A stretch of DNA of 64,000 bases, taken from positions 744,001-808,000 of the forward strand of contig NZ_JAFIDC010000001.1 in assembly GCF_017052655.1 (NCBI RefSeq), written 5' to 3'. This document shows positions 20,921 through 48,421 of this stretch, one piece after another. Numbering within the stretch: position 1 is the stretch's first letter; the number at the start of each line of letters is the position of its first letter. Source of the DNA: Acholeplasma equirhinis (lineage in GTDB: Bacteria; Bacillota_I; Bacilli_A; Acholeplasmatales; Acholeplasmataceae). The notes under the pieces were generated by a model. It was not told where the DNA came from and did not search any database. It worked only from the letters and a program-made list of their open reading frames with translations. The position numbers and the translations under genes are program-made.

Positions 20921-21811
20921 CTAATCTAGAAGTTGATTTTCATTTGTACAATCTATTAAAATCACATCTGGCAAATTCATTTCAACTCCATTATCCATAT
21001 TTTTTTCCAATTCTAATTCTCTTATTGTATTTAAAAATTTCACTCGAGACGGTTTATCAGATTTAATACTTTCATTAATTAATTTATTTCTTATATTATT
21101 AATTAAATTAATGTGATTGATATTGCCTTTAGATATTGGTGTTCCAATCAACATATTCTTCAAAGCAACCTCAAAATCATCTAAATCTAAACATCCTTCA
21201 ACCTCTTTATACCCCGATTTTGAAACAATTTTATTTGGAATTCCTATAAATTTTGATTTTCGTTCACTTTTACTTTTAATTTGTGATGTTTTTATTGGTG
21301 AGTTTAATTTAAGTCTATTTGCTATCGAATAATTCATATTATAAGTGTAACCACCAGTTATCAGGTTTTTCACTTTATAAAATACTCCATATGAACTTAC
21401 TGAATCTAAAATACCAGATGATAAAATATCCGGAAAGAGATAATTGCTACTACCTCTAGGAGTAATCAATGGTTTTGTGGTTAACAAATAATGTTGCCTT
21501 ACATTAATTTTAAAATCTCCCAATCCATAATATCCACTCATATTGTGCATAGTTTTATTTTGTAGAAGTGTATATCTAATTTGGGATTTACTAAATGAGA
21601 CTATTAACAAATCTGCTACTTCACATTGTACAGTAATCATTGATGTTTTATCAGAAACTGCAAATTCTACCATACCCGAACTTCCATGTAAAATATCAGC
21701 GAATGCAAAAGTTTGAAATGTTTGTTTCAGGGTTGTAAACAGTATTACTTCATTAATCTTAACCCCACATGCAATTTTATTATCAATTAAATTATTAAAT
21801 GTTGCTTTCAT
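20921..21811 (-). CDS. Hypothetical protein, partner of the FRG/RNase III-like protein
   Basis: A 296-residue protein of no family I recognise. The first 130 residues alternate hydrophobic and polar residues as in a beta-rich fold. The middle is basic (SQIKSKSERKSKFIGIPNK) and the C-terminal third is helical and charged. No signal peptide or membrane helix is seen. Its ATG overlaps the stop of the preceding gene (ATGA), so the two are coupled and likely work together. The end lies only 22 bases from the alaS promoter region. Confidence 0.7.
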   Translation of the reverse strand: MKATFNNLIDNKIACGVKINEVILFTTLKQTFQTFAFADILHGSSGMVEFAVSDKTSMITVQCEVADLLIVSFSKSQIRYTLLQNKTMHNMSGYYGLGDFKINVRQHYLLTTKPLITPRGSSNYLFPDILSSGILDSVSSYGVFYKVKNLITGGYTYNMNYSIANRLKLNSPIKTSQIKSKSERKSKFIGIPNKIVSKSGYKEVEGCLDLDDFEVALKNMLIGTPISKGNINHINLINNIRNKLINESIKSDKPSRVKFLNTIRELELEKNMDNGVEMNLPDVILIDCTNENQLLD

Positions 21812-23241
21812 TTAGATTCTTCTTTCGGATTAATTGCAGAGTTCAACTTTTCAAACATTACTTCATATTTATTTGCCATTGAAAGACTTTTATTAATGAT
21901 ATTTTTTTGAATTTTTCTATCTTTTAAAAGAGGAATCAACTCACTCTTAAACATTTGTTTTGGACTATGAATTCCATTTTGGCAATATTTTACATATAAT
22001 AATGCCTCTACGATATCAGCATATTTCTTTTCATTATTAAAATCATTATTATCAAATAAACAGTTTTTTGTACTTATTATTTTTTCACCTAACATATTTA
22101 AAACTGAATTATCTTGAATCATGCTTTTCCAATCAGTTAATTCTTCTTTCGTTTTAGCAATTTCCATTTCAAAAAAATATTCCGTTATACATAACGATAA
22201 AATTGCGTCTCCCATAGTTGCTAATTCTTTGTTTGAATTTACTTTGTACTTATACGCATAATCTACTCCAGTAAAAGCTTGCTGTTCTAATTCGGATATC
22301 TCATTTTTATCTTCCTTTAAATCCTGAAATAGTCTGGTTTTATTTTCCTTGGCTAAAGATTCTAAGCCTTTAAAAATTTTGGAATTTGATACCCCAGTAA
22401 AAAACATTAGTTCAGCAAGTATTTTCTTCTTTGCTATAGCGTTAATTTTAATATATGCTATTTCTTCTTTTACAGAGTGTTGATTTAACCCAAATAAAAT
22501 AAATAATCCGTCTTGTGCTTGTAATCGTTCATTAGCAAATTGAGGTTTTACATAATAATATTTGGTTAAATCTGAGGGTAGTATACGATGATTTATGAAT
22601 GCAGATCTTTCTCTTTCACATTCATAAATAAATTTAGAGAGAGTTTTTCTAGTAATTGAATCAATATCTAATTCAGAATTTTTTCTATCTCCTATATGTT
22701 TAGATTTAATTTCAGTATCGGGATACTTATCACAAAGACTTGAAATTATACCTTGTTCTTCTTTAGTAAATTTAGGTAATGTAGATAACATCAATGCTCT
22801 ATCAGAATCATAAGATAAGATTTGATTACTTGAATCGGCTTTAAATATATAAACATATCCATCTTCGCTATTATCATCAAGTGCGAAAAATAACGCTATT
22901 AGTGGATTTGTAGTAATATCCAACATTCTAGTTCTTATACCATAGTGTTGCATTTTGGCTAGAATATCCAGGTTCGATAAATTATTAAATTCATTTGGCA
23001 TTCTTCTAAGTGTATGATAGTAAATATCTTTTTCATTTTTTTTATTTATATCGTTTTTGTCTAGTCTAAACAATGAAGGTGTGCATCTTTGTTCAAAGTA
23101 TTGCTTTTCACCTCGAAAATAAATTCGAAGTTTTTCATCCTTATACAATTCATTAAGTTCATTTTCAAAAGTGTAAATAAATTCAGATAAACTAGATACA
23201 GTACTTATTTCAGTAAATTGTTTGACAACTTCTTTATTCAT
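21808..23241 (-). CDS. FRG-domain protein with C-terminal RNase III-like domain
   Basis: A 477-residue two-domain protein. The N-terminal half is an FRG domain: YFRGE (about residue 41), SLFR, and MQHYGIRTRMLDITTNPLIALFFAL. The C-terminal part (about 335-460) resembles RNase III/Mini-III: NKELATMGDAILSLCITEYF matches the (E)L-x-x-x-GDA-x signature, and KYADIVEALLYVKY matches the second ADxxEALxG motif. The first Glu of the canonical signature is Ala here. FRG domains occur in some phage-defence proteins, and a role against foreign RNA is an inference. Start 23241 has AAGGGG eight bases upstream. Confidence 0.75.
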   Translation of the reverse strand: MNKEVVKQFTEISTVSSLSEFIYTFENELNELYKDEKLRIYFRGEKQYFEQRCTPSLFRLDKNDINKKNEKDIYYHTLRRMPNEFNNLSNLDILAKMQHYGIRTRMLDITTNPLIALFFALDDNSEDGYVYIFKADSSNQILSYDSDRALMLSTLPKFTKEEQGIISSLCDKYPDTEIKSKHIGDRKNSELDIDSITRKTLSKFIYECERERSAFINHRILPSDLTKYYYVKPQFANERLQAQDGLFILFGLNQHSVKEEIAYIKINAIAKKKILAELMFFTGVSNSKIFKGLESLAKENKTRLFQDLKEDKNEISELEQQAFTGVDYAYKYKVNSNKELATMGDAILSLCITEYFFEMEIAKTKEELTDWKSMIQDNSVLNMLGEKIISTKNCLFDNNDFNNEKKYADIVEALLYVKYCQNGIHSPKQMFKSELIPLLKDRKIQKNIINKSLSMANKYEVMFEKLNSAINPKEESK

Positions 23242-23470
23242 TCGTGACACCCCTTATAATAATTTTCACTTAATTAATATATTATCATGTTTTAGCAAAC
23301 ACACTAATGCTAGTAAATCTCTAAAAAAACTATCAAAAGAAATAAAAATTACTAAATTTCACTATTTTTCTTAATTTAGTGACTAATTTAATGTCTTTCT
23401 GAAGACTTGTACACAATCTTTAAAGGCTTAATCTAATTTACTTGTGATATGATTATCTCGGTGACATCAA

Positions 23471-32696: not shown

Positions 32697-35600
32697 TTAT
32701 TCAAGTGGTGATATAACGATGTTTGTTGATCCATCAAATACAGTTTCACCATATGTATTAGGTACTAATTGAAGTGAACCAGTTGTATTCGTCATATTTG
32801 CAAATGCAAATTCACCTAAAGTTAAAGTTGAATACATATCAACATCTGTTAAATCAATTGTGATTGATGCAACTTTATTTGAACCAAAGAATGCATATTC
32901 ACCTACAGATTGTAACTTGTTAAATACTAAAGTAGATGTTAATGCAGTCATGTTTCTAAATGCGGAATTACCAATAATTTCAACATTTTGTAAACCGGAA
33001 ACTGAAATAACTTGTGTATTTTCAAACGCACTATTACCAATTTCTTTAATGTTTGCACCAATAGTCACATATCTTAAAGCTGTTGCTGATTTAAATGCTG
33101 AGTTGTTAATGCGAATAACTGGCATATCATAAATTGTATCTAAGATTGTAATTGTAGTTGGAGAACCATCATAACCTGCTACAAACCAGTATGAATTATC
33201 TGCTGGAAGTTGATAAGCAACATTTCCAGTTAAATAATATCTAGGACTAAATACAAGTCCATTTGAATCACTCTTAGCAAATGTTGTATAGGTGTTATTT
33301 TTTAAGAACAATCTACTTCTAACAGCTGGCATATTACCAAACCCAACGTTTTCAATATAGAGTGTGTCGTACATTGCTGTTGTTTCTAAATTAATTGCAA
33401 TATTTGTAACTGATGTTGCATATTGGAATGCGTATTCTTTTACACGTTGAAGTTTGTTAAAAATTAGATCTGATGTTAATGCTGTTGCATTGTTAAATGC
33501 ATATTTACCAACAGTAACAACTTGTTCAAAACCATTAAATGTCACGATTGGTGAGAAATAGAATGCATAGTCACCAATTTCAGCTACATTTGCACCATTT
33601 GTTACTGTAACTAAAGTTGGATTTTTTCTAAATGCATATGCAGCAATTGATGTCACCTTTAATCCTTCAATTTCATCGAGGATTTCGATTTCTGTTAAAC
33701 CAGTATATGCACCAACAACGGTATATTCAGATCCATTTAATTGATAATATACACCATCAATTAATAAATCGTATACAAACCAGTTAAGGTTAGTACTTGT
33801 ATTATTGGTTCCTATTGTTGTTTGACGTGTGAAGTATAGAGAACCATAAGTGTTTGACATTAAAGCGAATGCATAATTTCCAATGACTAAATTATCTAGC
33901 ATTTCTTCTGTTTCTAAATTAATCACTAATGAAGTAATCGCATAAGAATTATAGAATGCATAGTTTCCAATAGTTTGTACTTTATTTAGGACAACAGGTG
34001 AAGTCAGTGTGGTAATATTACGTAATGCACCTTCTTCAAATGTAACGACATTTTCTAATCCTGTAAATGTAACGATTTTACTATCACGGAATGCTTCAAA
34101 ACCAATAGTCTTAATATTAGATCCTAAGTTTAATGTCTTAATTGTTGTATCACTCTTAAATACGTTTGCTGCAATTGTTGTTACAGGATAGTTATAAAGC
34201 GTTTCAGGTATTGTAACAGTAACTAGTCCACTTTGTTTAGCTGAAACAGTAAATTCTTCTGTCGAAGCATTAAATGTATAAGTTAACCCATCAATTAAAT
34301 ATCTATTTATGAGTTGAATATTTGGACTGCTATTAAATGATGTTGAAACATATGATGCAGTGACAAGTCTTAATGTACCTGTTGCAGTCATACCACTAAA
34401 TGCATATGTTGCAATAGAAAGGGTTTGATACATACTTTCATGTGTTAGTTCGAATGCGATTGATTGTACTTTATTTGCACCTTCAAAAGCTCTTGTTTCA
34501 ATAAGTTGTAGTTTGTTAAAGACAAGTGGTGTCTCTAAACTTGTTGCATTTAAAAATGCAGATGCTTTAATTGTTGACACATTTTCTAAACCGAATACAT
34601 TCTTAACACTACTTAATTCGAATGCATTAGCAGAAATTGTTTGCATATTTGAACCAAGTACAACAGTTTCAATTGTCTTGTTTAATCTAAATGCGTTGGT
34701 TGATACGCTTGTTACTGGTAAGTCATTAACTAAACTTTGGATTTCAACTGCAGTTGCAGCATGATGTGCACCTAAAACAATATATGCTGTTTCTTCTGCA
34801 TTTAATTGATAGTATACATTATCAATATGCTCATCAAAAACATAAATGTTAAAGTTGAGACCACCATTATTTAGTCCTAATTGAGTATTTCTATTTACAT
34901 AGAATTTACCATACATATTGCCAATATTTGCAAGTGCATTATCACCAATAGCTAAAGTATCTAAGTTTGAATCATCTCCAAGATTTAATACCATAGATAT
35001 TATTTGATTTGAACCATTAAATGCATTGTTCCCTAACATTTGGAGTTCGTTAAATACGATCTCTGATGTTAATGATGTAATATTTCGGAATGCATTTTCT
35101 TTAATTGTTACGACATTTTCTAGTCCAGTAATGGATACTAATTTACTACTTTCGAATGCTGATACACCGATTGTAGTGATATTTTCTCCAAGCGCTACAG
35201 CGGTAACGCTTGGATTTAGTTTGAATGCATAATCTTTAATTTCTGTAACCGTTAAACCATTGATTTCAGCAGGGATATTAACCGTTGTTGTACCTCTTAG
35301 TGCACCAGATACCAAGTATGTTGTTTCGTCCTCATTTAAAGTGTATACAACACCGTCAATGACTTCATCATATCTGAAGATATGTAAGTTTGGATTTTCA
35401 TTTCCTTCTCCAACAATGGTATCTCTAGTTACATAAATATCTCCGTATGTTGTTGGTAAATTACCAAATGAGTTTTCACCAATAATCAAAGTATCTAGCA
35501 TTTCTTCTGATTCAAGTTCTAATGTAATTGATGGAATTGCAGTTGAACCATAGAATGCATAATTTCCAATCATTTGAATCTTATTAAATGTAATTGATGA

Positions 35601-38600
35601 TGTAAGTGTTGTAATGTTTCTAAATGCATTTAAACCAATGACTTCAACATAATTTAAACCAACAAATGTTGTAATCTTAGTATTTTCAAATGCACCATCA
35701 CCAATTTTATTCATGTTATCTCCAACTGTAACTGTTCTTAGAACTGTATTATTACGTACAGCATTTGTTTGAATTGAGGTTACTGGTAATGAATAAACTG
35801 TATTTGATATAGTTATTGAACTTGAAGAACCTGAATAACTTGTAAAGATCCATTCAGTATTTGAAGGATTGATTGCATAATTCATACTGCCTGAACTGTA
35901 AGTTCTTCCTCTAACAGTGAAACCTGAGGAACTTGTAAATGAAGTAGATTGATAAGAACTACTATGTAGATATAAATTAGCTTTTGTAGTTGAAGGAATA
36001 TTAGCAAACGCGTATGCATAAATAGTAATCGCATTATAAGCTGCTTCAGTTTCTAAATTAATCTCAATTGACGGTATCTTTTCTGTATATTGGAAAGCTG
36101 CTTGGCCAACTGTGATTGCTTTTGTTAATACAACTGGACTTGATAATTGTTTTGCAGAATAGAACGCTTGTAACCCAAAGGATTGAATTTGTTCGAATCC
36201 ATTAAATGTTTCGATACTTGAGTTTTCGAAGGCACGTTCGTTAATAACTAAAATATTTGCACCAACTGTTACAGTTCTAATCATTTGATTGTATCTAAAT
36301 CCGTTTGGTCCAATTGCAGTGACTGGTATGCCATTGACCTCATCTTCAATAATTACTTCTGATGTTCCATATGTAGAACCAATTGCTCTGTATATTCCAT
36401 TAAATAATTCATAATATACATCATTAACAAGTTCATCATAATAGAACCAGTTTAAGTTAGTGCTTGTATTTGATGAACCAACTGTTGATCCTCTTAAGAC
36501 ATAATAATTACCTTTTGCATTACCCATATTTGAGAATGCATATTGTCCGATATTAACTAAATCTTCTGTTTCAATTGCAACCTTAGTTACTCTTGTTGCA
36601 TAACTAAACGCAGATTGTCCGATTGTCTTAACTTTTCTTAAAACAATATCAGATGTTAATGATCCAGTACCACTAAATGCTAGATTTCCAATTGTTTCAA
36701 CGTCTTCTAAACCTGTAATTGTAACAATCTTACTTGATTCGAATGCACTTGCACCGATTGTAACGATATTCGCACCTAAAGTTACATTTAAGACTGTTGC
36801 ATCTGATTTGAATGCATTTGCTCCAATTGTTGTAACTGGATGATCATAAAGTGTATCTGGAATGACTACATTCACTAATCCTGCTATTCTACTAGATACT
36901 GTAAATTCTTCTGTTAAGAAATTATATGTGTATGCTAAACCATCGACTAAGTATCTATTTGTTACTGTAATATTAGGACTATTTTCGAATGATGTTGCTT
37001 GATAAGAAGCCGGTAAGATGTTTAATGTAGCTACAGCATTCATCCCCTTAAATGCAGTTGCACCGATTCTTAAATCACTGTACATTCTTTCATTTTCTAA
37101 TTCGATTTCAATACTTGGTACTGAAGTTGCATTTTCAAATGCACTCACTCCAAGTGTTTGGATCTTATTAAAGACGAGTGGTGTTGTTAATTGATTTGCA
37201 TTTTTAAATGCATTTTGATTAATTGTGATAAGTTGTTCAAACCCATTAAATGATTCAATAGCTGATAATTCAAATGCAGAATCACCAATTAGAGTCACAT
37301 TTTGACCAAGCGTTAATGATTTAAGTGTTGGATTCATTCTAAATGCTTTAGCTGCAATTTGAGTTACAGGTAAATCATTAATTGTATCTACAATCGTTCC
37401 TTCGACTAAATCATATTTAGCACCAACAACATAATATTCTGAACCATTTAATTGATAGAAAACATCATCAACGATTTCATCAAAAATGAACCAGTTAATG
37501 TTTGTAGAAGTGTTATTTGCACCTAAAACAGTGCTTCTTGAAATATAGAATGCACCATAAGTATTCCCCATACTATTAAATGCATATTCACCAATTGTTA
37601 ATGTATCAAGCATTTCAGAGTTTTCTAAGTCAAAGGTGATCGATGGAATCTTATTAGATGAATTAAATGCATATCTACCAATAGACTGTACTTTTTTAAA
37701 GACAATTTCTTGTTGAAGATTTGTTAAACCTCTAAATGCATCATTACCAATTGTTACAAGATTTTCAAAAATATCTATAGAAGTTAAAGCTGTTAAGTTT
37801 TGGAATGCACCATTACCAACATTTTCAACATTTGTAAATCCTGATACTGTCTTTAATGCAGTTGCACCTTGGAATGCTAAATTGCCAACAGATAGGATGT
37901 TTTCAGTACCTATGACAGTTGTTAAAGCTGATGCACCTTGGAAACCATTGACCGGTACTGCAGTTATATTCGCACCAATTGTAACAGTCTGCATGAATTT
38001 ATGATTTTGGAATGCAGCATCTTCAATCTTAGTCACTAAAACGCCATCAATATTATCTTTAATAACGACATTTTGAATTCTATTTGCACCAAGTACTGTA
38101 TAAGTATCTGTTTCAGATTCATATTTATAAGCAACACCATCAATAATTAAATCTGCAACAATGAATTTTACCTTAGTTTCACTACCGTTATTTGCTTTAG
38201 CATGTACACTTGTGTTTTGTGTAACAAATATCTTAGAATTATTTGCACTAGATAAATTACCGAATGCATCACTATCAATAACTAAAGTATCATAAAGTTC
38301 TTGTGTTGGTAAGTTAATACCTACTTCAGGAATAGACGCAGCACGGTTAAATGCTTCAAAGCCTAAAAATTGAATATTATTCAACTGAATTGCATGATTA
38401 ATTTTTGATTCTTTAAATGCACCAGATTCGATAATTTCAACATTTTCAAGACCATTAATTCTTGTTGTATTTGTACCTAAGAAAGCTCCCCAACCAATTT
38501 CTCTCATGCTTTCATTAAGGTTAACTGTTGTTGAACTTGTAATTTTTCCTCTAAATACTTCAGAATCAATTTTAACGACTGGCATATCTAAAATGATTTC

Positions 38601-39923
38601 TGGGATGTTAATTATAGTACCAGCATTCCCATTATAATAAGTAACAACATAACCCGTGTTTGCTTCATTAATCTTGAAGTTAAAGTATGAAGATGAAACT
38701 GCACCTCTATCTCTTAAGATGATACCAGGGCTATTTGAAAATACACCAGAAACATAAGAAACAGAGTTTAGGAAAATTCTACCTTGTGTATTATTAAGAT
38801 CAGAAAACGCATTTGCTTGAATTCTAAGTGCGTTATAAAGTGCTAGCGTTTCTAAATCAATTCTTAATTCAGAAATGTTTCCACTATATCTAAATGCTTC
38901 TGTTCCAATTGATTGAACATTTTCTAAATGCACATCAGATGATAGATTTAACATTGAATAAAAAGCTTGTGACTCAATTGTCACTAAACTTTCAAAGCCA
39001 GCCATTGTTTGAATGCTTGAATTTTTAAATGCACCAGACTCAACATAAGTCACATTTGCACCAAATACAAAGTTTTCAATCACTTGGTTATTATTAAATG
39101 CATTTGCAGCAATTCTAGTTACTGGAAGCTCATTGATTTGATCAACAACAACTGCATCTTTTATTAAACCATTATGACCAACAACAGTGTATGTTATCCC
39201 TGTAGCATCTGTTTCATATGCTAGGTTACCTAAAATTTCATCTACAACTACAAATTTTAAATTTGGTGTTGCATCAGTTGCTGTTGGATCAACAATTGTA
39301 TTTGATTTTACATATACAGTATTATTGAGTGAATACCCCATACTTGAAAATGCATTATATCCAATACTTAAAGTGTCATACATACCATCTTCAAGTTCAA
39401 AATAAACGTTTGATACGTTATAAGCACCAGAAAAGGCATTATCACCAATATACTGAACATTTTTAAAGTATAACGGAGATGTTAATTTATCAGTCCCAAA
39501 AAAGGCTTGACCTCCAATATACTCAACATTTTCTAAACCTGTCAATGTCTCGATTTTTGATCCTTTGAAAGCACCAATTTCAATTCTTGTAACATTTTCT
39601 CCTAAAGAAAGAGATTTAATCGCTTTATTTTCAAAAGCTTTATAATCTATTTTTGTTACAGGAAAATCAAAATAAGTGTCGGGAATCTCGACAACTTCAT
39701 TTGTACCAATATAATCAATAACGAACAGCGAATCTGAATCGTTATCATATTTGTAAATGATACCTTCAGGTGATTGACCATTTGGAAGATCTCCAAATAC
39801 ACCATCAATACCTATCTTATATTTACTATCCGTCTTTCCGAAAGAAAATGTTGCGTAAACAGCACTTAATGCGAATAAAACAAATAGCATTGTAATATTT
39901 ATAATTCTTATACTTTTTTTCAT
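32697..39923 (-). CDS. Giant BspA-type leucine-rich-repeat surface protein
   Basis: An exported protein of about 2408 residues. The signal segment ends AVYA-TFSF, with Ala at residue 24 if the ATG at 39923 is used (GGTGA stands five bases upstream). The rest is 13 tandem units of about 165-190 residues. Each unit opens with a header like LPVTxIAxxAF and continues with LRR_5 (BspA/TpLRR) turns such as VTLGANVxxIGxxAFExSxI, GLENVxTIGxxAFxNxTxLTS, NKLQxIGxxAF and LxIGxxAFxxM. A short linker with Gly-Tyr/Asn-rich beta strands joins the units. BspA-type proteins mediate adhesion and aggregation. There is no C-terminal anchor. Its signal motif and promoter match those of the divergent SipW-like operon. 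Confidence 0.9.
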   Translation of the reverse strand: MKKSIRIINITMLFVLFALSAVYATFSFGKTDSKYKIGIDGVFGDLPNGQSPEGIIYKYDNDSDSLFVIDYIGTNEVVEIPDTYFDFPVTKIDYKAFENKAIKSLSLGENVTRIEIGAFKGSKIETLTGLENVEYIGGQAFFGTDKLTSPLYFKNVQYIGDNAFSGAYNVSNVYFELEDGMYDTLSIGYNAFSSMGYSLNNTVYVKSNTIVDPTATDATPNLKFVVVDEILGNLAYETDATGITYTVVGHNGLIKDAVVVDQINELPVTRIAANAFNNNQVIENFVFGANVTYVESGAFKNSSIQTMAGFESLVTIESQAFYSMLNLSSDVHLENVQSIGTEAFRYSGNISELRIDLETLALYNALRIQANAFSDLNNTQGRIFLNSVSYVSGVFSNSPGIILRDRGAVSSSYFNFKINEANTGYVVTYYNGNAGTIINIPEIILDMPVVKIDSEVFRGKITSSTTVNLNESMREIGWGAFLGTNTTRINGLENVEIIESGAFKESKINHAIQLNNIQFLGFEAFNRAASIPEVGINLPTQELYDTLVIDSDAFGNLSSANNSKIFVTQNTSVHAKANNGSETKVKFIVADLIIDGVAYKYESETDTYTVLGANRIQNVVIKDNIDGVLVTKIEDAAFQNHKFMQTVTIGANITAVPVNGFQGASALTTVIGTENILSVGNLAFQGATALKTVSGFTNVENVGNGAFQNLTALTSIDIFENLVTIGNDAFRGLTNLQQEIVFKKVQSIGRYAFNSSNKIPSITFDLENSEMLDTLTIGEYAFNSMGNTYGAFYISRSTVLGANNTSTNINWFIFDEIVDDVFYQLNGSEYYVVGAKYDLVEGTIVDTINDLPVTQIAAKAFRMNPTLKSLTLGQNVTLIGDSAFELSAIESFNGFEQLITINQNAFKNANQLTTPLVFNKIQTLGVSAFENATSVPSIEIELENERMYSDLRIGATAFKGMNAVATLNILPASYQATSFENSPNITVTNRYLVDGLAYTYNFLTEEFTVSSRIAGLVNVVIPDTLYDHPVTTIGANAFKSDATVLNVTLGANIVTIGASAFESSKIVTITGLEDVETIGNLAFSGTGSLTSDIVLRKVKTIGQSAFSYATRVTKVAIETEDLVNIGQYAFSNMGNAKGNYYVLRGSTVGSSNTSTNLNWFYYDELVNDVYYELFNGIYRAIGSTYGTSEVIIEDEVNGIPVTAIGPNGFRYNQMIRTVTVGANILVINERAFENSSIETFNGFEQIQSFGLQAFYSAKQLSSPVVLTKAITVGQAAFQYTEKIPSIEINLETEAAYNAITIYAYAFANIPSTTKANLYLHSSSYQSTSFTSSSGFTVRGRTYSSGSMNYAINPSNTEWIFTSYSGSSSSITISNTVYSLPVTSIQTNAVRNNTVLRTVTVGDNMNKIGDGAFENTKITTFVGLNYVEVIGLNAFRNITTLTSSITFNKIQMIGNYAFYGSTAIPSITLELESEEMLDTLIIGENSFGNLPTTYGDIYVTRDTIVGEGNENPNLHIFRYDEVIDGVVYTLNEDETTYLVSGALRGTTTVNIPAEINGLTVTEIKDYAFKLNPSVTAVALGENITTIGVSAFESSKLVSITGLENVVTIKENAFRNITSLTSEIVFNELQMLGNNAFNGSNQIISMVLNLGDDSNLDTLAIGDNALANIGNMYGKFYVNRNTQLGLNNGGLNFNIYVFDEHIDNVYYQLNAEETAYIVLGAHHAATAVEIQSLVNDLPVTSVSTNAFRLNKTIETVVLGSNMQTISANAFELSSVKNVFGLENVSTIKASAFLNATSLETPLVFNKLQLIETRAFEGANKVQSIAFELTHESMYQTLSIATYAFSGMTATGTLRLVTASYVSTSFNSSPNIQLINRYLIDGLTYTFNASTEEFTVSAKQSGLVTVTIPETLYNYPVTTIAANVFKSDTTIKTLNLGSNIKTIGFEAFRDSKIVTFTGLENVVTFEEGALRNITTLTSPVVLNKVQTIGNYAFYNSYAITSLVINLETEEMLDNLVIGNYAFALMSNTYGSLYFTRQTTIGTNNTSTNLNWFVYDLLIDGVYYQLNGSEYTVVGAYTGLTEIEILDEIEGLKVTSIAAYAFRKNPTLVTVTNGANVAEIGDYAFYFSPIVTFNGFEQVVTVGKYAFNNATALTSDLIFNKLQRVKEYAFQYATSVTNIAINLETTAMYDTLYIENVGFGNMPAVRSRLFLKNNTYTTFAKSDSNGLVFSPRYYLTGNVAYQLPADNSYWFVAGYDGSPTTITILDTIYDMPVIRINNSAFKSATALRYVTIGANIKEIGNSAFENTQVISVSGLQNVEIIGNSAFRNMTALTSTLVFNKLQSVGEYAFFGSNKVASITIDLTDVDMYSTLTLGEFAFANMTNTTGSLQLVPNTYGETVFDGSTNIVISPLE

Positions 39924-39950
39924 TTTCATCACCGAGTCAAGTTATATCAA

Positions 39951-39979
39951 TTTATATGTATAAAAAGATTTCAAAACCC
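39951..39979 (-). promoter_or_regulatory. Promoter-like motif of the LRR gene (GGGTTT-N17-TATAAA)
   Basis: On the minus strand AAGGGTTTTGA contains GGGTTT (39974-39979), followed after 17 bases by TATAAA (39951-39956), 28 bases from the start codon. A second TTCAAGGGTTTTAA box lies exactly 21 bases upstream, two helical turns. The same arrangement precedes the divergent operon. Confidence 0.6.
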
Positions 39980-40344
39980 TTGAATTAAAGTTTAAAACCC
40001 TTGAAAATCGAAAAACATCTCAATTGATAGGTTTAAAAAGTCCGGTGATCAAATCAAAATAGTGTTAAATAGTCCAATTTTTTTATTTAAATTCTTGTTT
40101 GTTTTTATTTTTCTAAATCATAGATTTTTCATTAATTTCTTAGATTTAAAATGCACATAATTTAAACTTACAATATACCTCATATGCATCAAATAAATAC
40201 TTAATTATATCTTCCGCGCGCACACGTATATTACATAATAAATACACGGTTCACAAATTAGTACGTTTTTGATGTCACTAAAATAGATCATTTAATGACC
40301 TTATATCAATTTTTATTAAATCAACCTTTATAAATATATTTATA

Positions 40345-40500: not shown

Positions 40501-40622
40501 ATTGATCTTAAAAAACACCATATTTTGAAAGCTTTTAAATTTATCCAGATGATCAATTTGTAAAAAATTATATTATTCAATACCCTTTTTTGAAAATTAA
40601 AGGTGTGAAACGATACGTTTAA

Positions 40623-40650
40623 GGGTTTTGATTAGTTTTCTAACTATAAA
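40623..40650 (+). promoter_or_regulatory. Promoter-like motif of the SipW-like operon (GGGTTT-N16-TATAAA)
   Basis: AAGGGTTTTGA contains GGGTTT (40623-40628), 16 bases before TATAAA (40645-40650), about 75 bases upstream of the first ATG. It matches the LRR-gene motif in the same orientation relative to its gene. Confidence 0.6.
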
Positions 40651-40724: not shown

Positions 40725-41279
40725 ATGAGACATTTAAAATTTACTTTACTAGCAATCTTTATGGTGTTAGGTTCAATCGGAATCGTATTTGCAGCCTTTA
40801 ATTTTTCTGAAGGACTCGATAAGGAAGTTAGCGTACTATTTAGGTTAGCTCCTTATGAGGTGGAAGGTACAATCACTTACGAGTTTTTCAAGAATTCAAA
40901 TGAGCCTGTCGATGCACTCCAATTACCAAGCGATGAAGATTCAGCAGAAGGATACATCATCACGGTTAAGATTTATCACACTTTACCAGCTGATGTTGCC
41001 AAATCAGTTTTCAATTATATCGAAACAGTGATTAACTTCAATTTTGATAGTACTGTTATCAATGAAAAATATGACGTTTTAATTGAAGGTACACCAGAAT
41101 GGGTTGAATTTGATGATTATACCCAAGTTGGAACTTACAACATTAGATTTTCTCCAAAAATACCATTCACATTAGAAACATGGATGGCATTCAAGGCAGA
41201 TTTAAATGCTGCAATGGATAACGATACTGCAAATATTGTATTAACAGTTCAAATTCCATATAACGAGGAAGGTGTATAA
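40725..41279 (+). CDS. Exported TasA/camelysin-like protein, paralog 1
   Basis: The 184-residue first gene of the operon. The signal segment ends IVFA-AFNF, with Ala at residue 23. The AAFN junction also occurs at the cleavage site of Bacillus TasA. The mature part is acidic and beta-rich, without Cys. It shares the overall plan of the four later paralogs (an EGTITYEFFKN segment, a central FNFDSTVINEKYDVLIE strand pair, a C-terminal helix TWMAFKADLNAAM) but is the most divergent. AAGGAG lies eight bases before the ATG. Probably processed by the SipW-like peptidase downstream; function as a fibre or surface subunit is inference. Confidence 0.75.
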   Translation: MRHLKFTLLAIFMVLGSIGIVFAAFNFSEGLDKEVSVLFRLAPYEVEGTITYEFFKNSNEPVDALQLPSDEDSAEGYIITVKIYHTLPADVAKSVFNYIETVINFNFDSTVINEKYDVLIEGTPEWVEFDDYTQVGTYNIRFSPKIPFTLETWMAFKADLNAAMDNDTANIVLTVQIPYNEEGV

Positions 41280-41280
41280 C

Positions 41281-41844
41281 ATGAAAAAATTACTAATTCC
41301 TGTAATTGTCGTTGTTGCGATATTCTTAACAATTGTTGGATCATACGCAATCTTCACTTTCTATGAAACGCAAACTAAAGAAATCTCACTTGAGATTGAT
41401 ATTAAAGATGCTGTTCTAGACGGTGAACTTGAAGTAAATGTTCAATATTTCGAAAATGAGGCATTAACAGAACTTGGTTTATTAGTTGATGCACCAAGTC
41501 TTCAAGAAAAACATTATGTCATTCTTGAAATCAAGCATCTTCTAGCAGATGCACAATATAGAGATCCAAATGGTTATGATTATGAAAATATACAATTAGA
41601 TGCAAGTTTCAAAAACGAAACATTCGATGCATATTTTACAATCCAAATCACAACATTAGATCCATTTACTGCACTCGATTCAGATACAATGGTTGGTACT
41701 TTCAAACTAGAACTTGTTTGGAATGATCCAACAATGATTGATACTGAAAACGAATATTTAGCACTTGAACAATTATTCGCAGATTCAATATTAGATGAAA
41801 CTTTAGGCATTGATTTAACAGTTACAATCAATGCGTTAAGTTAA
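41281..41844 (+). CDS. Exported TasA/camelysin-like protein, paralog 2
   Basis: The 187-residue protein has the signal segment ending GSYA-IFTF (Ala23). Shared blocks: DGELEVNVQYF near residue 50, YDYENIQLDASF then FDAYFTIQIT in the middle, and EYLALEQLFADSIL near the end. The mature part is acidic, Cys-free and predicted beta-rich. ATG at 41281 lies one base after the stop of paralog 1, with GAGGAAGG upstream, so the two are coupled. The peptidase gene follows 20 bases downstream. Confidence 0.77.
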   Translation: MKKLLIPVIVVVAIFLTIVGSYAIFTFYETQTKEISLEIDIKDAVLDGELEVNVQYFENEALTELGLLVDAPSLQEKHYVILEIKHLLADAQYRDPNGYDYENIQLDASFKNETFDAYFTIQITTLDPFTALDSDTMVGTFKLELVWNDPTMIDTENEYLALEQLFADSILDETLGIDLTVTINALS

Positions 41845-41864
41845 TCCATAAAGGAGAAATAACT

Positions 41865-43157
41865 ATGGACACAAATTTAATGATTATATTTATCATTGCA
41901 TCCATCACAATAATTACTTTCCTTCTTACTTTTACACTACTTATGAGTGGATTAAATAGAAAAGAAAGAGAACTTGTTAGATCTGGAGCACGTGATGAAG
42001 CAATTAAAAAAACTGTACAAAATCAAAAAAAATTCAGTTACAAGTTTTTAAAAACGATCAGTACAATAATTGAATCTCTGTTCTCACTTGTATTAGTTGC
42101 CTTAATTGCAGCTAGTTTATATACAACTTATTTAAACAATGATATTCAACTATTTGATTTTGATATTAAAGTCGTTGCAACAGATTCAATGGCTGAAGCT
42201 AATCCTAGAAATGAATATCTGGCTGAAAACAATTTAACTAATCAATTTTCAGCAAACGATATTATCTTCTTCTCTAAATTACCAGCTGAATCAGATTTAA
42301 AACTATATGACATCGTTTCTTACTATGACGAAACAAATGATCGATTAATCGTACACAGAATTATCGATATCATCGAAACTTCTGAAGGTAAACAATTCGT
42401 TTTAAGAGGTGATGCAAATCGTACTTCTGATAGTAAAACTATTCTCTATTCAGATTTAAGAGCTATCTACAATGGTCAAAAGATTGAAGGTTTTGGTTTA
42501 GTGGTTAAGTTTATTCAATCACCATTTGCTTTAATTGCTATGGCTGTTATGGTTTACGTCTTAATTATTGATAGTATTTTCCAAAAGAATTTAAAACAAT
42601 TAGATAAATCTAGATATCAAGAAATTAAACAACGTGATGCTTTACTTGAAGAACGTGCTCAAGAAAGAAATGAAAAGAAATTAGAAGAACAAACTGTTAA
42701 ACATGTTAGATCAAACAGTTATGAATTAGTTGAGAAAGACAAGAAATTCGGTTTCCGTTTATATGATTCTAACGGTGACTTATTAGTAACATCGGCATTT
42801 TATCAAACTGAAGAAATTGCAGAACAAAGAAGACATCAAATCGCTGATATGGTTGAAAAGAAACATTATGAAATTTATAAAGATTCAAAAGGTTTCCACC
42901 AAATCAAATTGTATACAGGTAACAAACGTTTAATGTTTGTATGTGAACCTCAAAATTCACTAAGAAAAGCAAAACTTGCATTAAAAGAATTAAAAATGCT
43001 TGCATTAGGTGCTAAAAAATTAATCCCAGAAGAAGTGATGGAACAGCAATTAGCAACCGTGGGAGATAATGCAACAAATGAAACTCAAGTGATTCTTGAA
43101 AAACCTGAAAACATCATTGAAGATACTAAATCTGAAGCAGCTAATGCAACGATTTAA
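41865..43157 (+). CDS. SipW-like (ER-type) signal peptidase with C-terminal YegP-like repeats
   Basis: A 430-residue membrane peptidase. Helices at about 7-28, 68-90 and 213-236. The catalytic domain has Ser108 in VVATDSMA, His164 in RLIVHRI and Asp183 in LRGDANRTSD. His in place of Lys marks the archaeal/ER-type family that includes SipW of Bacillus. After a basic linker (240-285) come two DUF1508/YegP-like repeats: FGFRLYDSNGDLLVTSAFYQ and FHQIKLYTGNKRLMFVCEPQ. Typical SipW is about 190 residues, so the tail is unusual. It should cut the A-x-F-x-F signal segments of its neighbours. Confidence 0.85.
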   Translation: MDTNLMIIFIIASITIITFLLTFTLLMSGLNRKERELVRSGARDEAIKKTVQNQKKFSYKFLKTISTIIESLFSLVLVALIAASLYTTYLNNDIQLFDFDIKVVATDSMAEANPRNEYLAENNLTNQFSANDIIFFSKLPAESDLKLYDIVSYYDETNDRLIVHRIIDIIETSEGKQFVLRGDANRTSDSKTILYSDLRAIYNGQKIEGFGLVVKFIQSPFALIAMAVMVYVLIIDSIFQKNLKQLDKSRYQEIKQRDALLEERAQERNEKKLEEQTVKHVRSNSYELVEKDKKFGFRLYDSNGDLLVTSAFYQTEEIAEQRRHQIADMVEKKHYEIYKDSKGFHQIKLYTGNKRLMFVCEPQNSLRKAKLALKELKMLALGAKKLIPEEVMEQQLATVGDNATNETQVILEKPENIIEDTKSEAANATI

Positions 43158-43178
43158 AAAAAGAAAGGAGTAAAGCGT

Positions 43179-43751
43179 ATGAAACATTTAAAGATTGCAC
43201 TTGTTGGACTATTTCTTATAATTGCAACAATGAGTACAGTTTATGCAATATTCACCTTTGCAACTTCTAAAAGTTCTACTTCTGCTTTGAACTTAAAGGT
43301 AAGTGGTTATAGTGATATTGGAGAATTAACATCCGAAGTTAATGTTTATCAAGATGATGTTGAAGTACCAAGTTTCATTGTTGATAATTCAACAGAACTA
43401 GATAAAAATTATGCAACTGTAAAGTTTATGCATCGTTTACCAATTAACTCCTTATATACACATGATGACGTTGATTATCAAAATGCACTTTATGAGTTTA
43501 GTATCCATAATGACTTAGTTGAATACTTTGACCTTGTTGTAACAACCGTTAATCCCTGGGAAATGATTAATGATGAAAATCTATATGGTGCAACAATTTC
43601 ATTCAAAGTTCAATTAATGTTCAAAGATTCAAAAGAACCTTCCAATTTAAGTGAATATGAAGCATTATCAAATATCCTGGAAGAATTAACCCTAAATAAT
43701 GAAAACTTAATTCATGTAACAATGACTTTACAAGTTATTCAAAATGATTAA
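43179..43751 (+). CDS. Exported TasA/camelysin-like protein, paralog 3
   Basis: 190 residues. The signal segment ends TVYA-IFTF (Ala23). Shared blocks: IGELTSEVNVYQDDVEV, DVDYQNALYEFS, VEYFDLVVTTVNPW and EYEALSNILEELTL. Closest in layout to paralog 2. GAAAGGAG precedes the ATG and the gene follows the peptidase by 21 bases. A long hairpin separates it from paralog 4. Confidence 0.77.
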   Translation: MKHLKIALVGLFLIIATMSTVYAIFTFATSKSSTSALNLKVSGYSDIGELTSEVNVYQDDVEVPSFIVDNSTELDKNYATVKFMHRLPINSLYTHDDVDYQNALYEFSIHNDLVEYFDLVVTTVNPWEMINDENLYGATISFKVQLMFKDSKEPSNLSEYEALSNILEELTLNNENLIHVTMTLQVIQND

Positions 43752-43778
43752 AGTTTAGACTCTTACATTAGTTTTAAT

Positions 43779-43835
43779 ATTCATGATTCTAACTACGGTA
43801 TCTAGTCTTTAGGTACACTAGTTAGAGTCATGAAT
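43779..43835 (+). repeat. Long intercistronic hairpin between paralogs 3 and 4
   Basis: A 17-base inverted repeat with one mismatch (ATTCATGATTCTAACTA at 43779-43795 and its complement at 43819-43835) encloses a second seven-pair stem GTATCTA/TAGGTAC. There is no T-run, so it is not an ordinary terminator. It could be a processing or stabilising structure at the 5' end of the paralog 4 mRNA. Confidence 0.8.
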
Positions 43836-43890
43836 AAAGACTTCATTAAATTAATAAAAAATATAAATAAAAGAAAAGGAAGAAACAAAA

Positions 43891-44451
43891 ATGAAAAATT
43901 TTAGATTTAGTTTAATTGCCCTATTATTCTTAGTAGGTACATTAGGAATGGCGTTCGCGTTATTCACATTTGTTGAAGATGGTGCTATCGACCAAAACTT
44001 AGGTTTAAAGGTTGAAGACTATGTTGAATTTGGTGAATTAGAATCATCAGTTAAATATTTAGTTGAAGGTGTTGAAGACCTTACATTATCAGGTATCGTT
44101 ATTGACAATGAAATAGATCAAGCTAAATATGCTGCTGAAGTTACTTTAACTCATATTTATGATGAAGATTCAGTTATTTCATTTGAAGATGTTGATTATG
44201 AAAATGCAATTATCAAAGCTGTATTTAACGAAGCATTCTTAGATGAATACTTCACAATTGAATTAACTTATGCTGATTGGGAAGATCAAGACACTCAAGC
44301 ACAATTAGTTGTTACAGTTACATTAGTATGGTTAGAAGACGCAATATTAACTTCACCTGAAGATTATGCAGACTTTGTTGCAAACTTCGATGCAAACAAA
44401 GCATTAGCAGACATCATTACATTATCAGTTACTTTAGAATTAGCTGACTAA
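43891..44451 (+). CDS. Exported TasA/camelysin-like protein, paralog 4 (candidate major subunit)
   Basis: The 186-residue protein has the signal segment ending MAFA-LFTF (Ala23). Shared blocks: FGELESSVKYLVEG, DVDYENAIIKAVF, LDEYFTIELTYADW and DYADFVANFD. Very acidic and Cys-free. A strong AAAAGGAAG site precedes it. It is framed by the long hairpin upstream and a terminator downstream, which would let its mRNA accumulate separately. Calling it the major subunit is inference from this layout. Confidence 0.77.
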   Translation: MKNFRFSLIALLFLVGTLGMAFALFTFVEDGAIDQNLGLKVEDYVEFGELESSVKYLVEGVEDLTLSGIVIDNEIDQAKYAAEVTLTHIYDEDSVISFEDVDYENAIIKAVFNEAFLDEYFTIELTYADWEDQDTQAQLVVTVTLVWLEDAILTSPEDYADFVANFDANKALADIITLSVTLELAD

Positions 44452-44534
44452 TTCATTTAAAAGTTAAATTAACTTGGAAAGAAAATTTGGAGTTTAATTT
44501 AACGCAAACAGTAACATTTTGCTTCCCAAAGGAA

Positions 44535-44570
44535 GGAAGGGGCCTCCCTCTCCTACAGCCCCTTTCTTTA
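44535..44570 (+). terminator. Terminator-like hairpin after paralog 4
   Basis: GGAAGGGGC (44535-44543) pairs with GCCCCTTTC (44558-44566), one G-U pair, followed by TTTATATCTTTT. It is GC-rich with a poor T-run, so partial read-through into paralog 5 is likely. Confidence 0.6.
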
Positions 44571-44598
44571 TATCTTTTCAAGAAAGGATCAAAAATTC

Positions 44599-45168
44599 AT
44601 GAAAAATAAAGCTCTTTTCATATTAGCAATTGCTGCTATTCTACTTACAATAGCAACCGCTTATGCAATCTTTATGTTTAATACACAAAAAACTTCCAAT
44701 ACAGATATTGATATTATCATTGAAGACCCAAACACACTTGGTGAAATCACAGCTGAGTTAGTTTTAACATTTGATGGTGAAGTTCAAGATCAACCTGGAT
44801 TTAGTTTTGATGCTGAAGATGAAATGAGTAAATATGTTTATACACTCTATCTAAGTCATTTACCTAGTGTGGATATTAATCATCCTGATGCAGACTATTC
44901 TAAAGTACAAATCTCTATTCAAATTGAAGATGAAACATTAGCTGAATATCTTCTATTTGATGTTCAATATGTTGAAACAAAACAAGTAGAATCACAATTT
45001 GTGTCTGAATATACAATAACTTATGCTTACCAAGATGATATGGCTCCAAAAGATATTGAAACATATGAAACATTAAAGTCTATAATTGGATCTTTAAAAT
45101 TATTCGAAGAAAATATCTTAACTATCACAATTACTTTTGACGAATCAATATACGGTCTAGAAGATTAA
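44599..45168 (+). CDS. Exported TasA/camelysin-like protein, paralog 5
   Basis: The 189-residue protein has the signal segment ending TAYA-IFMF (Ala23). Shared blocks: LGEITAELVLTFDGEV, DADYSKVQISIQIEDETLAEYLLF and TYETLKSIIGSLKL. Acidic, no Cys. AGAAAGGATC precedes the ATG. It lies beyond the weak terminator, so it may be made in smaller amounts. A good terminator follows and closes the operon. Confidence 0.77.
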   Translation: MKNKALFILAIAAILLTIATAYAIFMFNTQKTSNTDIDIIIEDPNTLGEITAELVLTFDGEVQDQPGFSFDAEDEMSKYVYTLYLSHLPSVDINHPDADYSKVQISIQIEDETLAEYLLFDVQYVETKQVESQFVSEYTITYAYQDDMAPKDIETYETLKSIIGSLKLFEENILTITITFDESIYGLED

Positions 45169-45210
45169 ATCAATATATAAATATAAAGTATTTAACAACC
45201 CATTGTAATG

Positions 45211-45244
45211 TGAGTAGTTTTAATCAAACTGCTCATATTTTTTT
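45211..45244 (+). terminator. Intrinsic terminator closing the SipW-like operon
   Basis: TGAGTAGTTT-TAATC-AAACTGCTCA (one G-U pair) followed by a run of T on the plus strand. Confidence 0.85.
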
Positions 45245-46543: not shown

Positions 46544-48421
46544 TCAAACCTCTTGTGCTTGTTTAATTATATTTTTAAAATGTTCTCTAAGATTTTCATC
46601 TTCACAATAAATATAGCAACCTTTTTGACCTCTTGTAAGTAAAGTTTTATATGTATTGAGGATTAGTTTTCTTGCTGTATTTTCATCTGTAGATTTTATA
46701 CCTGAAGATTTGTCATCATTAGATATTTTTGTTCTATCAGTTAATACTATACCATCTCTGAAAACTAAATCTTTACCTATAATTACACCCACATAATCAA
46801 ATTCTAACCCTTGAGCTGTGTGAATACATCCAACTTGATCAAATGAATTTTGACTTATAGCCCAAGTTTTATCATTATCAAGATTCCATTGAGCCTTAAA
46901 GTCCCCAATAATAATATCCCACATTCCACGATTAAACTTAACATTCCAATCATAGCAATATCCAGCAACCATTCGAACTTTGTTAAAATGTTTAGGTGTT
47001 TCGTTTATCAATTTAAGGGCATTTTTCATTTCTGATGGATCATCGAAGACTTTTACTTCATAATCCAAATCTTTAATGTCTATATCAATATATTCTTCTG
47101 CTTGTAATAAATTATTAACTAATTGAATATAGGCATCACTTCCATTACATCGAAATTGAGATTTTAATATTAAATTTTCGCTCATTATAACTTGACTATT
47201 TAATTCGTGAGCATGTTTTTTAATTTCATCAACTGAACCGATGTCTTTCGTTGTTATTCTTTGATCTTCATCAATTAAAAACACTGTTAATAAACTTGCA
47301 TTTATGCATTCTCTAACTTGATTTTGACCAGTAAAATCACCATACATTTTTTTTACTAATCGATGAGCCTCATCAACAATTAAACATTTATAAGCATTTT
47401 CTGGTGCTTTACTTAAATTGAATGGTGATCTAAAAATAGACTTGATACTTACTCCTAATTTTAAATCATCTTTACCTAACAACTTTAAAAACGCTTCTCT
47501 TGGTGCACTGTTTTTAGTCACATAACTCGCAAATAATCCTCTATCAATTAATTCTTTTAAAAGATTTATTGCTAATACTGATTTCCCAGTACCAGGTCCA
47601 CCTTGAATTATAACTGTTCTTTTTTTACCATCTTGTAGACATTTTGCCATGTTAGACAACACTGAGTCAAACGCCACAACTTGATCATCCAACAATAAAA
47701 ATTCTTTTTTACCTTGTAGTACGGATTTTATAGCATCTTGTAGCGCTTTTGATGGTCGGATAGCACCACTTTCAATTTTGTATAATAGTTTTTGATCACT
47801 TGGTTTATTACATACAAATTTTGATAGAAACTCACGCAATTTTAGCATTTCATCTTTTATAAAAACTGGAGCTTCTTTAATCCAAGTTTGATATATATCA
47901 TCGGTCAGATCTTCATAATATGTTCTTTCATAATTATGTAGATAAGCAGTTGGAATAATAGTTATATCTTCTTCTTGAATTACCATTGATGCGTTTTTGA
48001 TGCTAGTTGAATAGGAATAGGCTTGATAGGATGGATGGGAGACATATCGATTTGCATTTCCTGTATATGTTTTAACAGTATGTTTACTTTCATCATCAAC
48101 TTTTTCAAGTTTAGTCCACTGTTTTAATTCAATAACTACTATATTATCTTTCTTTGAATTATTAGATCCACAAATAATAAAATCTACTCTTTTTGATGTT
48201 CTAGGAATTTGATATTCTATCGCAACCAATGCATCATCTGAAAAACTGTCATGATCTAGTAAATTTCTCATAAACTGCATCGAATTTGTCCATGCAGAAA
48301 ATTCATTATTGAAATTAACATAGGTGCTGTTTTCTAAAAATTTATGTTGAATTTTGTCAGCTATCTGGTTATTAATTACATCTTTAATAAATTCTCTTTT
48401 GGTATTAGAATATACAATCAT
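46544..48421 (-). CDS. Nuclease-helicase fusion with DUF2075 domain
   Basis: A 625-residue protein. The N-terminal 150 residues resemble a PD-(D/E)xK nuclease: RVDFIICG, then IVVIELKQW (D...ExK). The C-terminal part is a DUF2075-type P-loop helicase with GGPGTGKSVLA (Walker A), CLIVDEAHRL (Walker B), LIDEDQRI, and CIHTAQGLEFDYVGVIIG (motif V/VI region). Similar proteins are found near restriction-modification and other defence genes. Coupled MazG downstream supports a defence role, which remains inference. Confidence 0.8.
   Translation of the reverse strand: MIVYSNTKREFIKDVINNQIADKIQHKFLENSTYVNFNNEFSAWTNSMQFMRNLLDHDSFSDDALVAIEYQIPRTSKRVDFIICGSNNSKKDNIVVIELKQWTKLEKVDDESKHTVKTYTGNANRYVSHPSYQAYSYSTSIKNASMVIQEEDITIIPTAYLHNYERTYYEDLTDDIYQTWIKEAPVFIKDEMLKLREFLSKFVCNKPSDQKLLYKIESGAIRPSKALQDAIKSVLQGKKEFLLLDDQVVAFDSVLSNMAKCLQDGKKRTVIIQGGPGTGKSVLAINLLKELIDRGLFASYVTKNSAPREAFLKLLGKDDLKLGVSIKSIFRSPFNLSKAPENAYKCLIVDEAHRLVKKMYGDFTGQNQVRECINASLLTVFLIDEDQRITTKDIGSVDEIKKHAHELNSQVIMSENLILKSQFRCNGSDAYIQLVNNLLQAEEYIDIDIKDLDYEVKVFDDPSEMKNALKLINETPKHFNKVRMVAGYCYDWNVKFNRGMWDIIIGDFKAQWNLDNDKTWAISQNSFDQVGCIHTAQGLEFDYVGVIIGKDLVFRDGIVLTDRTKISNDDKSSGIKSTDENTARKLILNTYKTLLTRGQKGCYIYCEDENLREHFKNIIKQAQEV

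What the first reader, a model, noticed from the sequence alone, without database searches (positions are those of the whole stretch)
40725..45168. SipW-like peptidase operon with five paralogous exported proteins: a TasA/camelysin-like surface system in a wall-less bacterium
Five genes of 184-190 residues share one plan: a signal segment, a GE[LI] strand, a central D[YV]-x-N block followed by EYF, and a C-terminal helix. They surround an ER-type signal peptidase with Ser108-His164-Asp183. In Bacillus, SipW processes TasA, TapA and camelysin, which form the biofilm matrix. Here the set is larger (five) and occurs in a likely Mollicute, where I know of no described equivalent. The products may polymerise into surface fibres.
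Basis: partly seen in the sequence, partly recalled or inferred. Interest (0 to 1): 0.9.

Follow-up and report, generated by a model that had tools for sequence, protein, structure and literature searches.

The report
Dedicated export kit for bacterial surface
A wall-less bacterium related to Acholeplasma carries a private signal peptidase packed with five sister exported proteins and a giant repeat protein, all apparently switched on by one regulator; this looks like a new variant of the machinery Bacillus uses to build its biofilm fibres, though fibre formation itself is not shown.

Summary
Window 40725-45168 encodes five exported proteins (184-190 aa) and an ER-type (SipW-like) signal peptidase. 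The five are true paralogues (leave-one-out profile on mature parts, E 1e-6 to 1e-20). All five have Phe at the second residue after the expected cleavage site, the SipW-substrate mark known from TasA. The genome lacks penicillin-binding transpeptidase and belongs to Acholeplasmatales, so wall-less is fair.

A divergent 2411-aa BspA-type leucine-rich-repeat protein carries the same signal. Both promoters, and those of homologous units in this genome and one congener, share tandem repeats spaced 21 bp, the layout of LytTR-regulator boxes; an orthologous LytTR two-component system sits beside such a unit in both genomes.

TasA/camelysin kinship is not shown: no profile, family-model or fold match. 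The five define a new family found only in two of 160 genomes of the order. Nor is SipW itself rare here: the same genome has another SipW cluster of the published CoCoPALM (McrBC-linked) type.

Best reading: a LytTR-controlled, dedicated-peptidase export system that coats the cell with beta-sandwich subunits and a giant adhesin-like protein. Cleavage, assembly and adhesion are inferred.

The parts
40725..41279 (+). E1, exported E-family protein, 184 aa, expected cleavage FA|AFNF; most divergent of the five
41281..41844 (+). E2, exported E-family protein, 187 aa, YA|IFTF
41865..43157 (+). SipW-like ER-type signal peptidase, 430 aa: three TM segments (5-23, 65-83, 221-239), Ser108/His164/Asp183+Asp189, C-terminal tail with DUF1508 (YegP-like) repeat
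   Evidence: (SigPepSipWBacil 1.1e-15)
43179..43751 (+). E3, exported E-family protein, 190 aa, YA|IFTF; AlphaFold2 model pLDDT 75
43770..43842 (+). long intergenic RNA hairpin between E3 and E4 (no T run), z -5.65; possible mRNA processing or stabilising element
43891..44451 (+). E4, exported E-family protein, 186 aa, FA|LFTF; mature-part model pLDDT 71
44599..45168 (+). E5, exported E-family protein, 189 aa, YA|IFMF; preceded by a G+C-rich hairpin in 44452-44598
45207..45239 (+). intrinsic-terminator-like hairpin with T tract closing the operon
32697..39932 (-). giant BspA-type LRR_5 protein, 2411 aa, about 13 modules of ~178 residues, signal YA|TFSF, no C-terminal membrane segment; divergent from the operon
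   Evidence: (LRR_5 6.4e-179)
39968..40005 (-). tandem direct repeat TTCAAGG...TTCAAGG, 21 bp start to start, upstream of the LRR gene; LytTR-box-like
40597..40634 (+). tandem direct repeat TTAAAGG...TTTAAGG, 21 bp start to start, upstream of E1; LytTR-box-like

Best explanation
This is a dedicated surface-export system. A LytTR two-component system (in this genome encoded elsewhere, at G000:C1:26221 on) binds 21-bp-spaced tandem boxes and turns on two divergent units: the E1-E2-peptidase-E3-E4-E5 operon and the giant LRR gene. The products go out by Sec with signals that end A|x-F-x-F; the aromatic residue at P2' makes them poor substrates of ordinary signal peptidase, and the SipW-like enzyme next door removes the signal. 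The acidic, cysteine-free E proteins, Ig-like beta-sandwiches with a disordered N-terminal arm, most likely assemble with each other on the wall-less cell surface and hold or present the LRR protein, which acts as an adhesin. Shown by sequence: genes, paralogy, signals, active-site residues, shared promoter motif, regulator next to a motif-bearing unit. Inferred: cleavage by this enzyme, regulator binding, assembly, adhesion.
For: Five true paralogues around the peptidase; peptidase matches SipW models and keeps Ser/His/Asp. In the window only the five and the giant LRR protein, six of 57 ORFs, have a hydrophobic N-terminus followed by A-x-F-x-F; Phe at P2' is reported for TasA, which SipW cleaves and E. 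coli LepB handles poorly (PMC10269814). In the one congener with this peptidase (38% identity, sister in tree, 100/99), its only two LRR_5 proteins both flank the peptidase along with three E-family genes, and both have the window giant as best match outside themselves. Unbiased search over 4096 hexamers in seven upstream regions: TTTAGG repeated at 21 bp is best, z 7.8; none of 2000 random sets reaches it (max 5.4); 21 is the best of 16 spacings. Genome-wide the extended motif occurs 3 times here and 4 times in the congener, always at these units, reversed control zero. LytTR regulators next to such units are orthologous, 47-50% identity, against at most 35% for others; LytTR boxes are 9-12-9 bp (PMC6193735).
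Against: No fold match ties E proteins to a known fibre subunit; models rest on five sequences and pLDDT 71-75. No experiment shows expression, cleavage or assembly. The wide motif pattern was drawn from the sites it then found, so one search is partly circular (one search is the fairer test). LRR proteins of the congener have weaker signals (YAVLGG, YSVILL). The genome holds two other SipW-type peptidases that could process these substrates.
Confidence: 0.55

Rival explanations
1. The five are strongly diverged true members of the TasA/camelysin superfamily and build TasA-type donor-strand fibres.
For: SipW next door; P2' Phe like TasA; predicted beta-sandwich with a free N-terminal arm, as in the TasA donor strand (PMC9674648). 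Recognisable PF12389 proteins do occur in the genus (G001, G002).
Against: No PF12389/TIGR04088 match; no profile-profile signal; VPGD...N-G pattern of those proteins absent by eye; TasA not in fold lists.
Confidence: 0.2
2. The E proteins are monomeric secreted or surface-bound lineage-specific proteins (host interaction or antigenic diversity), not fibre subunits; SipW merely matures them.
For: Strong divergence between paralogues (~20-26% identity), restriction to two species of the order, accompanying LRR protein of a type often found in host-associated bacteria (own knowledge).
Against: No sign of phase variation was noticed (not tested systematically); several subunits in one operon with their own peptidase fit assembly better.
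Confidence: 0.25
3. The locus is a detached module of a CoCoPALM (McrBC-linked, signal-peptidase-associated) system and serves the same unknown, possibly defensive, role.
For: The peptidase's clade (8 rows, 100/99) includes enzymes sitting directly beside McrB-like AAA+ and McrC-like genes; in G001 such a pair lies a few kb upstream.
Against: No McrB/McrC gene in the window; this genome's only strong copy is 0.63 Mb away with its own two SipWs.
Confidence: 0.12
4. The signals are not cleaved and act as membrane anchors; the peptidase serves another role.
For: A wall-less cell has no wall to hold secreted proteins and no other anchor is present.
Against: A|x-F-x-F is kept in all six substrates and the catalytic residues are conserved.
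Confidence: 0.08

Closest known systems
tapA-sipW-tasA operon of Bacillus subtilis
   Same: Dedicated ER-type signal peptidase encoded between its substrates; substrates with Phe at P2'; beta-sandwich products with a free N-terminal arm (predicted here)
   Different: Five mutually homologous substrates not detectably related to TasA; peptidase has an extra N-terminal TM segment and a DUF1508 tail; giant LRR partner; LytTR-type control instead of SinR; no cell wall
CapP-TasA-CalY (camelysin) system of Bacillus cereus (PMC13082335)
   Same: Several co-acting SipW-type matrix proteins, sortase-independent
   Different: No PF12389 match; no CapP homologue identified (not searched specifically)
CoCoPALM systems (PMC11090510) as found elsewhere in this genome and order
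   Same: SipW-type peptidases with several exported proteins; the window peptidase's nearest clade lies in such loci
   Different: No McrB-like or McrC-like gene at the window locus
BspA-type LRR_5 surface proteins
   Same: LRR_5 modules over the whole mature part
   Different: SipW-type signal, divergent from and apparently co-regulated with a SipW operon

Membership tests
SipW / ER-type signal peptidase I | Ser-His active site with conserved Asp, in place of Ser-Lys | tested here: met
   Ser108, His164, Asp183, Asp189 invariant in four relatives; aligns to SEC11 around His/Asp
SipW / ER-type signal peptidase I | Reaches curated cut-off of NCBIfam SipW equivalog (190 bits) or TIGR02228 (51.85) | tested here: not met
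   57.7 and 46.7 bits: homologous, but not a member of the Bacillus equivalog
SipW / ER-type signal peptidase I | Encoded with substrates bearing aromatic P2' | tested here: met
   PMC10269814
SipW / ER-type signal peptidase I | Cleaves the neighbouring precursors | not testable with these tools
   needs processing assay
TasA/camelysin (PF12389) | Match to Peptidase_M73 model | tested here: not met
   the model does hit other proteins in the genus
TasA/camelysin (PF12389) | SipW-cognate signal model TIGR04088 | tested here: not met
   only hit in the genome is elsewhere, 13 bits, below cut-off
TasA/camelysin (PF12389) | TasA jelly-roll fold | tested here: inconclusive
   beta-sandwich models without significant match; TasA not listed
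TasA/camelysin (PF12389) | Donor-strand polymerisation | not testable with these tools
   only a low-confidence N-terminal arm seen
BspA-type LRR | LRR_5 modules above cut-off | tested here: met
   585.7 bits against 27.7, 15 stretches
LytTR regulon | Tandem direct repeats, 21 bp start to start, upstream of target genes | tested here: met
   spacing rule from PMC6193735
LytTR regulon | Regulator binds these repeats | not testable with these tools
   needs gel shift or footprint
CoCoPALM | McrB-like GTPase and McrC-like partner in the locus | tested here: not met
   absent from window; single strong AAA+ copy at G000:C1:150729

The most novel reading that the evidence does not exclude
A new, TasA-independent family of donor-strand-type fibre subunits, matured by its own SipW in a wall-less bacterium, presenting a giant LRR adhesin and switched on by a LytTR/GHKL (quorum-sensing-type) two-component system.
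Probability: 0.25. Interest if true: 0.8.

Novelty: new variant of a known kind. Interest (0 to 1): 0.58.

Why it matters
Protein surface fibres and coats of wall-less bacteria are poorly known, and searches with TasA models would miss this family. The shared LytTR-like boxes define a small regulon that can be tested directly, and a second SipW of another type in the same cell allows a test of substrate choice between parallel signal peptidases.

Tried and rejected
TasA/camelysin by Pfam, NCBIfam, genome-wide models and profile-profile comparison: negative; the last test could not even join two PF12389 subgroups, so it is weak. Fold searches: best hits with Z 5-6 are Listeria antigen B, gamma-adaptin ears and Ig domains, at noise level; FimA, CfaB and Caf1 pilins appear among ties and were not used as evidence. 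PDB sequence searches: nothing. A first, unweighted motif test was swamped by A+T-rich hexamers and was replaced by a background-weighted one. Half-site scan at 12 of 14 matches shows no excess at 21 bp. The repeated GTTCACAAATTRRTAC in the divergent promoter region is not clearly above chance. One genome-contig scan named only six loci, the own genome being withheld.

Full report
What is there. Six + strand genes lie head to tail at 40725-45168: E1, E2, a 430-aa peptidase, E3, E4, E5, closed by a terminator-like hairpin at 45207-45239. E1, E2, peptidase and E3 are 1-21 nt apart; E3-E4 and E4-E5 are separated by ~140 nt, each with an RNA hairpin (z -5.65 and -2.35). The mature E proteins are acidic (pI 4.05-4.2), free of cysteine and have no membrane segment except the signal.

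Are the five related? Yes. With the signals cut off, each is recovered by a profile of the other four at E 7e-7 to 2e-20 against about 400 other ORFs. It is a beta-sandwich; nothing in the PDB matches significantly.

The peptidase. It matches the Bacillus SipW model (1.1e-15) and the archaeal/ER-type model (2.9e-12), below both curated cut-offs. Ser108, His164, Asp183 and Asp189 are invariant among four relatives. It has three membrane segments and a tail with DUF1508, above Pfam's cut-off when the tail is scanned alone. In a tree of 60 SipW-like enzymes it is sister to that of congener G001 (100/99), inside a clade of rumen-type Acholeplasmatales and Erysipelotrichaceae enzymes, apart from the two SipW types of the genus's conserved cluster.

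Signals. All five and the divergent 2411-aa LRR_5 protein (32697-39932, about 13 modules of ~178 residues) end the signal with A|x-F-x-F; no other of 57 ORFs in the window does. Phe at P2' is a property for which TasA is handled by SipW and fails with the ordinary E. coli enzyme (PMC10269814). So the LRR protein is most likely a sixth substrate.

Distribution. E-family genes occur only in this genome (5) and congener G001 (6) among 160 genomes of the order at convincing scores (the weaker hits cover mostly the signal). G001 alone of seven congeners has the same peptidase type. Its only two LRR_5 proteins flank that peptidase, and their best match is the window giant. The set peptidase + E family + LRR therefore travels together.

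Control. The E1 and LRR promoters both carry tandem repeats TTHAAGG spaced 21 bp, in the same sense relative to their gene. The same layout stands upstream of the G001 LRR and E units and of an LRR paralogue of this genome at G000:C1:~25370. An unbiased test over all hexamers picks TTTAGG at 21 bp, z 7.8; 0 of 2000 random sets of upstream regions reach it. A wider pattern hits 3 places here and 4 in G001, all at these units; two hits in other congeners appear to lie inside coding sequence; this pattern was drawn from the sites, so it is descriptive. In G001 a LytTR response regulator and GHKL kinase sit directly upstream of the operon; in this genome the orthologous pair (regulator ~50%, kinase 38% identity) sits beside the LRR paralogue, and it is the genome's only such regulator at E <= 1e-10. 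LytTR boxes are typically 9-bp repeats with a 12-bp gap, i.e. 21 bp (PMC6193735). The repeat sequence itself does not obviously match the published LytTR consensus, so assignment to this regulator rests on spacing and neighbourhood.

Known or new. SipW clusters are common in this order. This genome has another, at G000:C1:147164-157625, with two SipW enzymes, five exported proteins, a membrane McrB-like AAA+ protein and a DUF2357 (McrC-like) protein. That matches the published CoCoPALM association of McrBC-like systems with signal peptidases (PMC11090510). The window locus lacks the McrB/McrC pair. The E family itself has no family model. No paper held links SipW with Acholeplasma.

Verdict. 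Observation confirmed; interpretation partly supported. It works like the TasA-SipW system in its dedicated peptidase and P2' Phe substrates; membership of the TasA/camelysin family was tested and not met. Assembly into fibres remains a reasonable but untested inference.

Noticed in passing
L086:5164-15625 (G000:C1:147164-157625): Second SipW cluster of the same genome, CoCoPALM-like: two SipW enzymes, membrane McrB-like AAA+, DUF2357/McrC-like protein and five exported proteins (mostly YAWF-type signals); the AAA+ is conserved in 7 of 8 genomes of the genus.
   Followed up: partly
L157:7871-10381 (G000:C1:633871-636381): Two more exported proteins with FAFW/FAYW signals, the larger with CBM5/12 modules; possible further SipW substrates.
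   Followed up: partly
L036:481-14731 and similar loci L035, L037-L041, L044: CoCoPALM-like clusters with SipW enzymes, several YAWF proteins and a ~2300-aa exported protein, sometimes duplicated in tandem.
   Followed up: no
L156:3261-8042 (G001:C1:481261-486042): True PF12389/TIGR04088 camelysin-like operon with its own SipW in the congener; absent from the window's genome.
   Followed up: partly
window 43770-43842: Very stable intergenic hairpin between E3 and E4 without a T run, z -5.65.
   Followed up: partly
window 20921-23250: Two-gene unit; by eye the first (21808-23250) looks like an FRG domain followed by an RNase III-like domain; possible defence pair.
   Followed up: no
window 46544-48421: 625-aa DUF2075-like ATPase with hits to defence-associated models (PDC-S41 5e-17, AbiO 2e-13), with a MazG-like protein and a GIY-YIG-like ORF beside it (last two by eye).
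   Followed up: partly
L046:9317-10876: 519-aa membrane protein with four DUF1508 repeats like the peptidase tail, in another family of the order.
   Followed up: no
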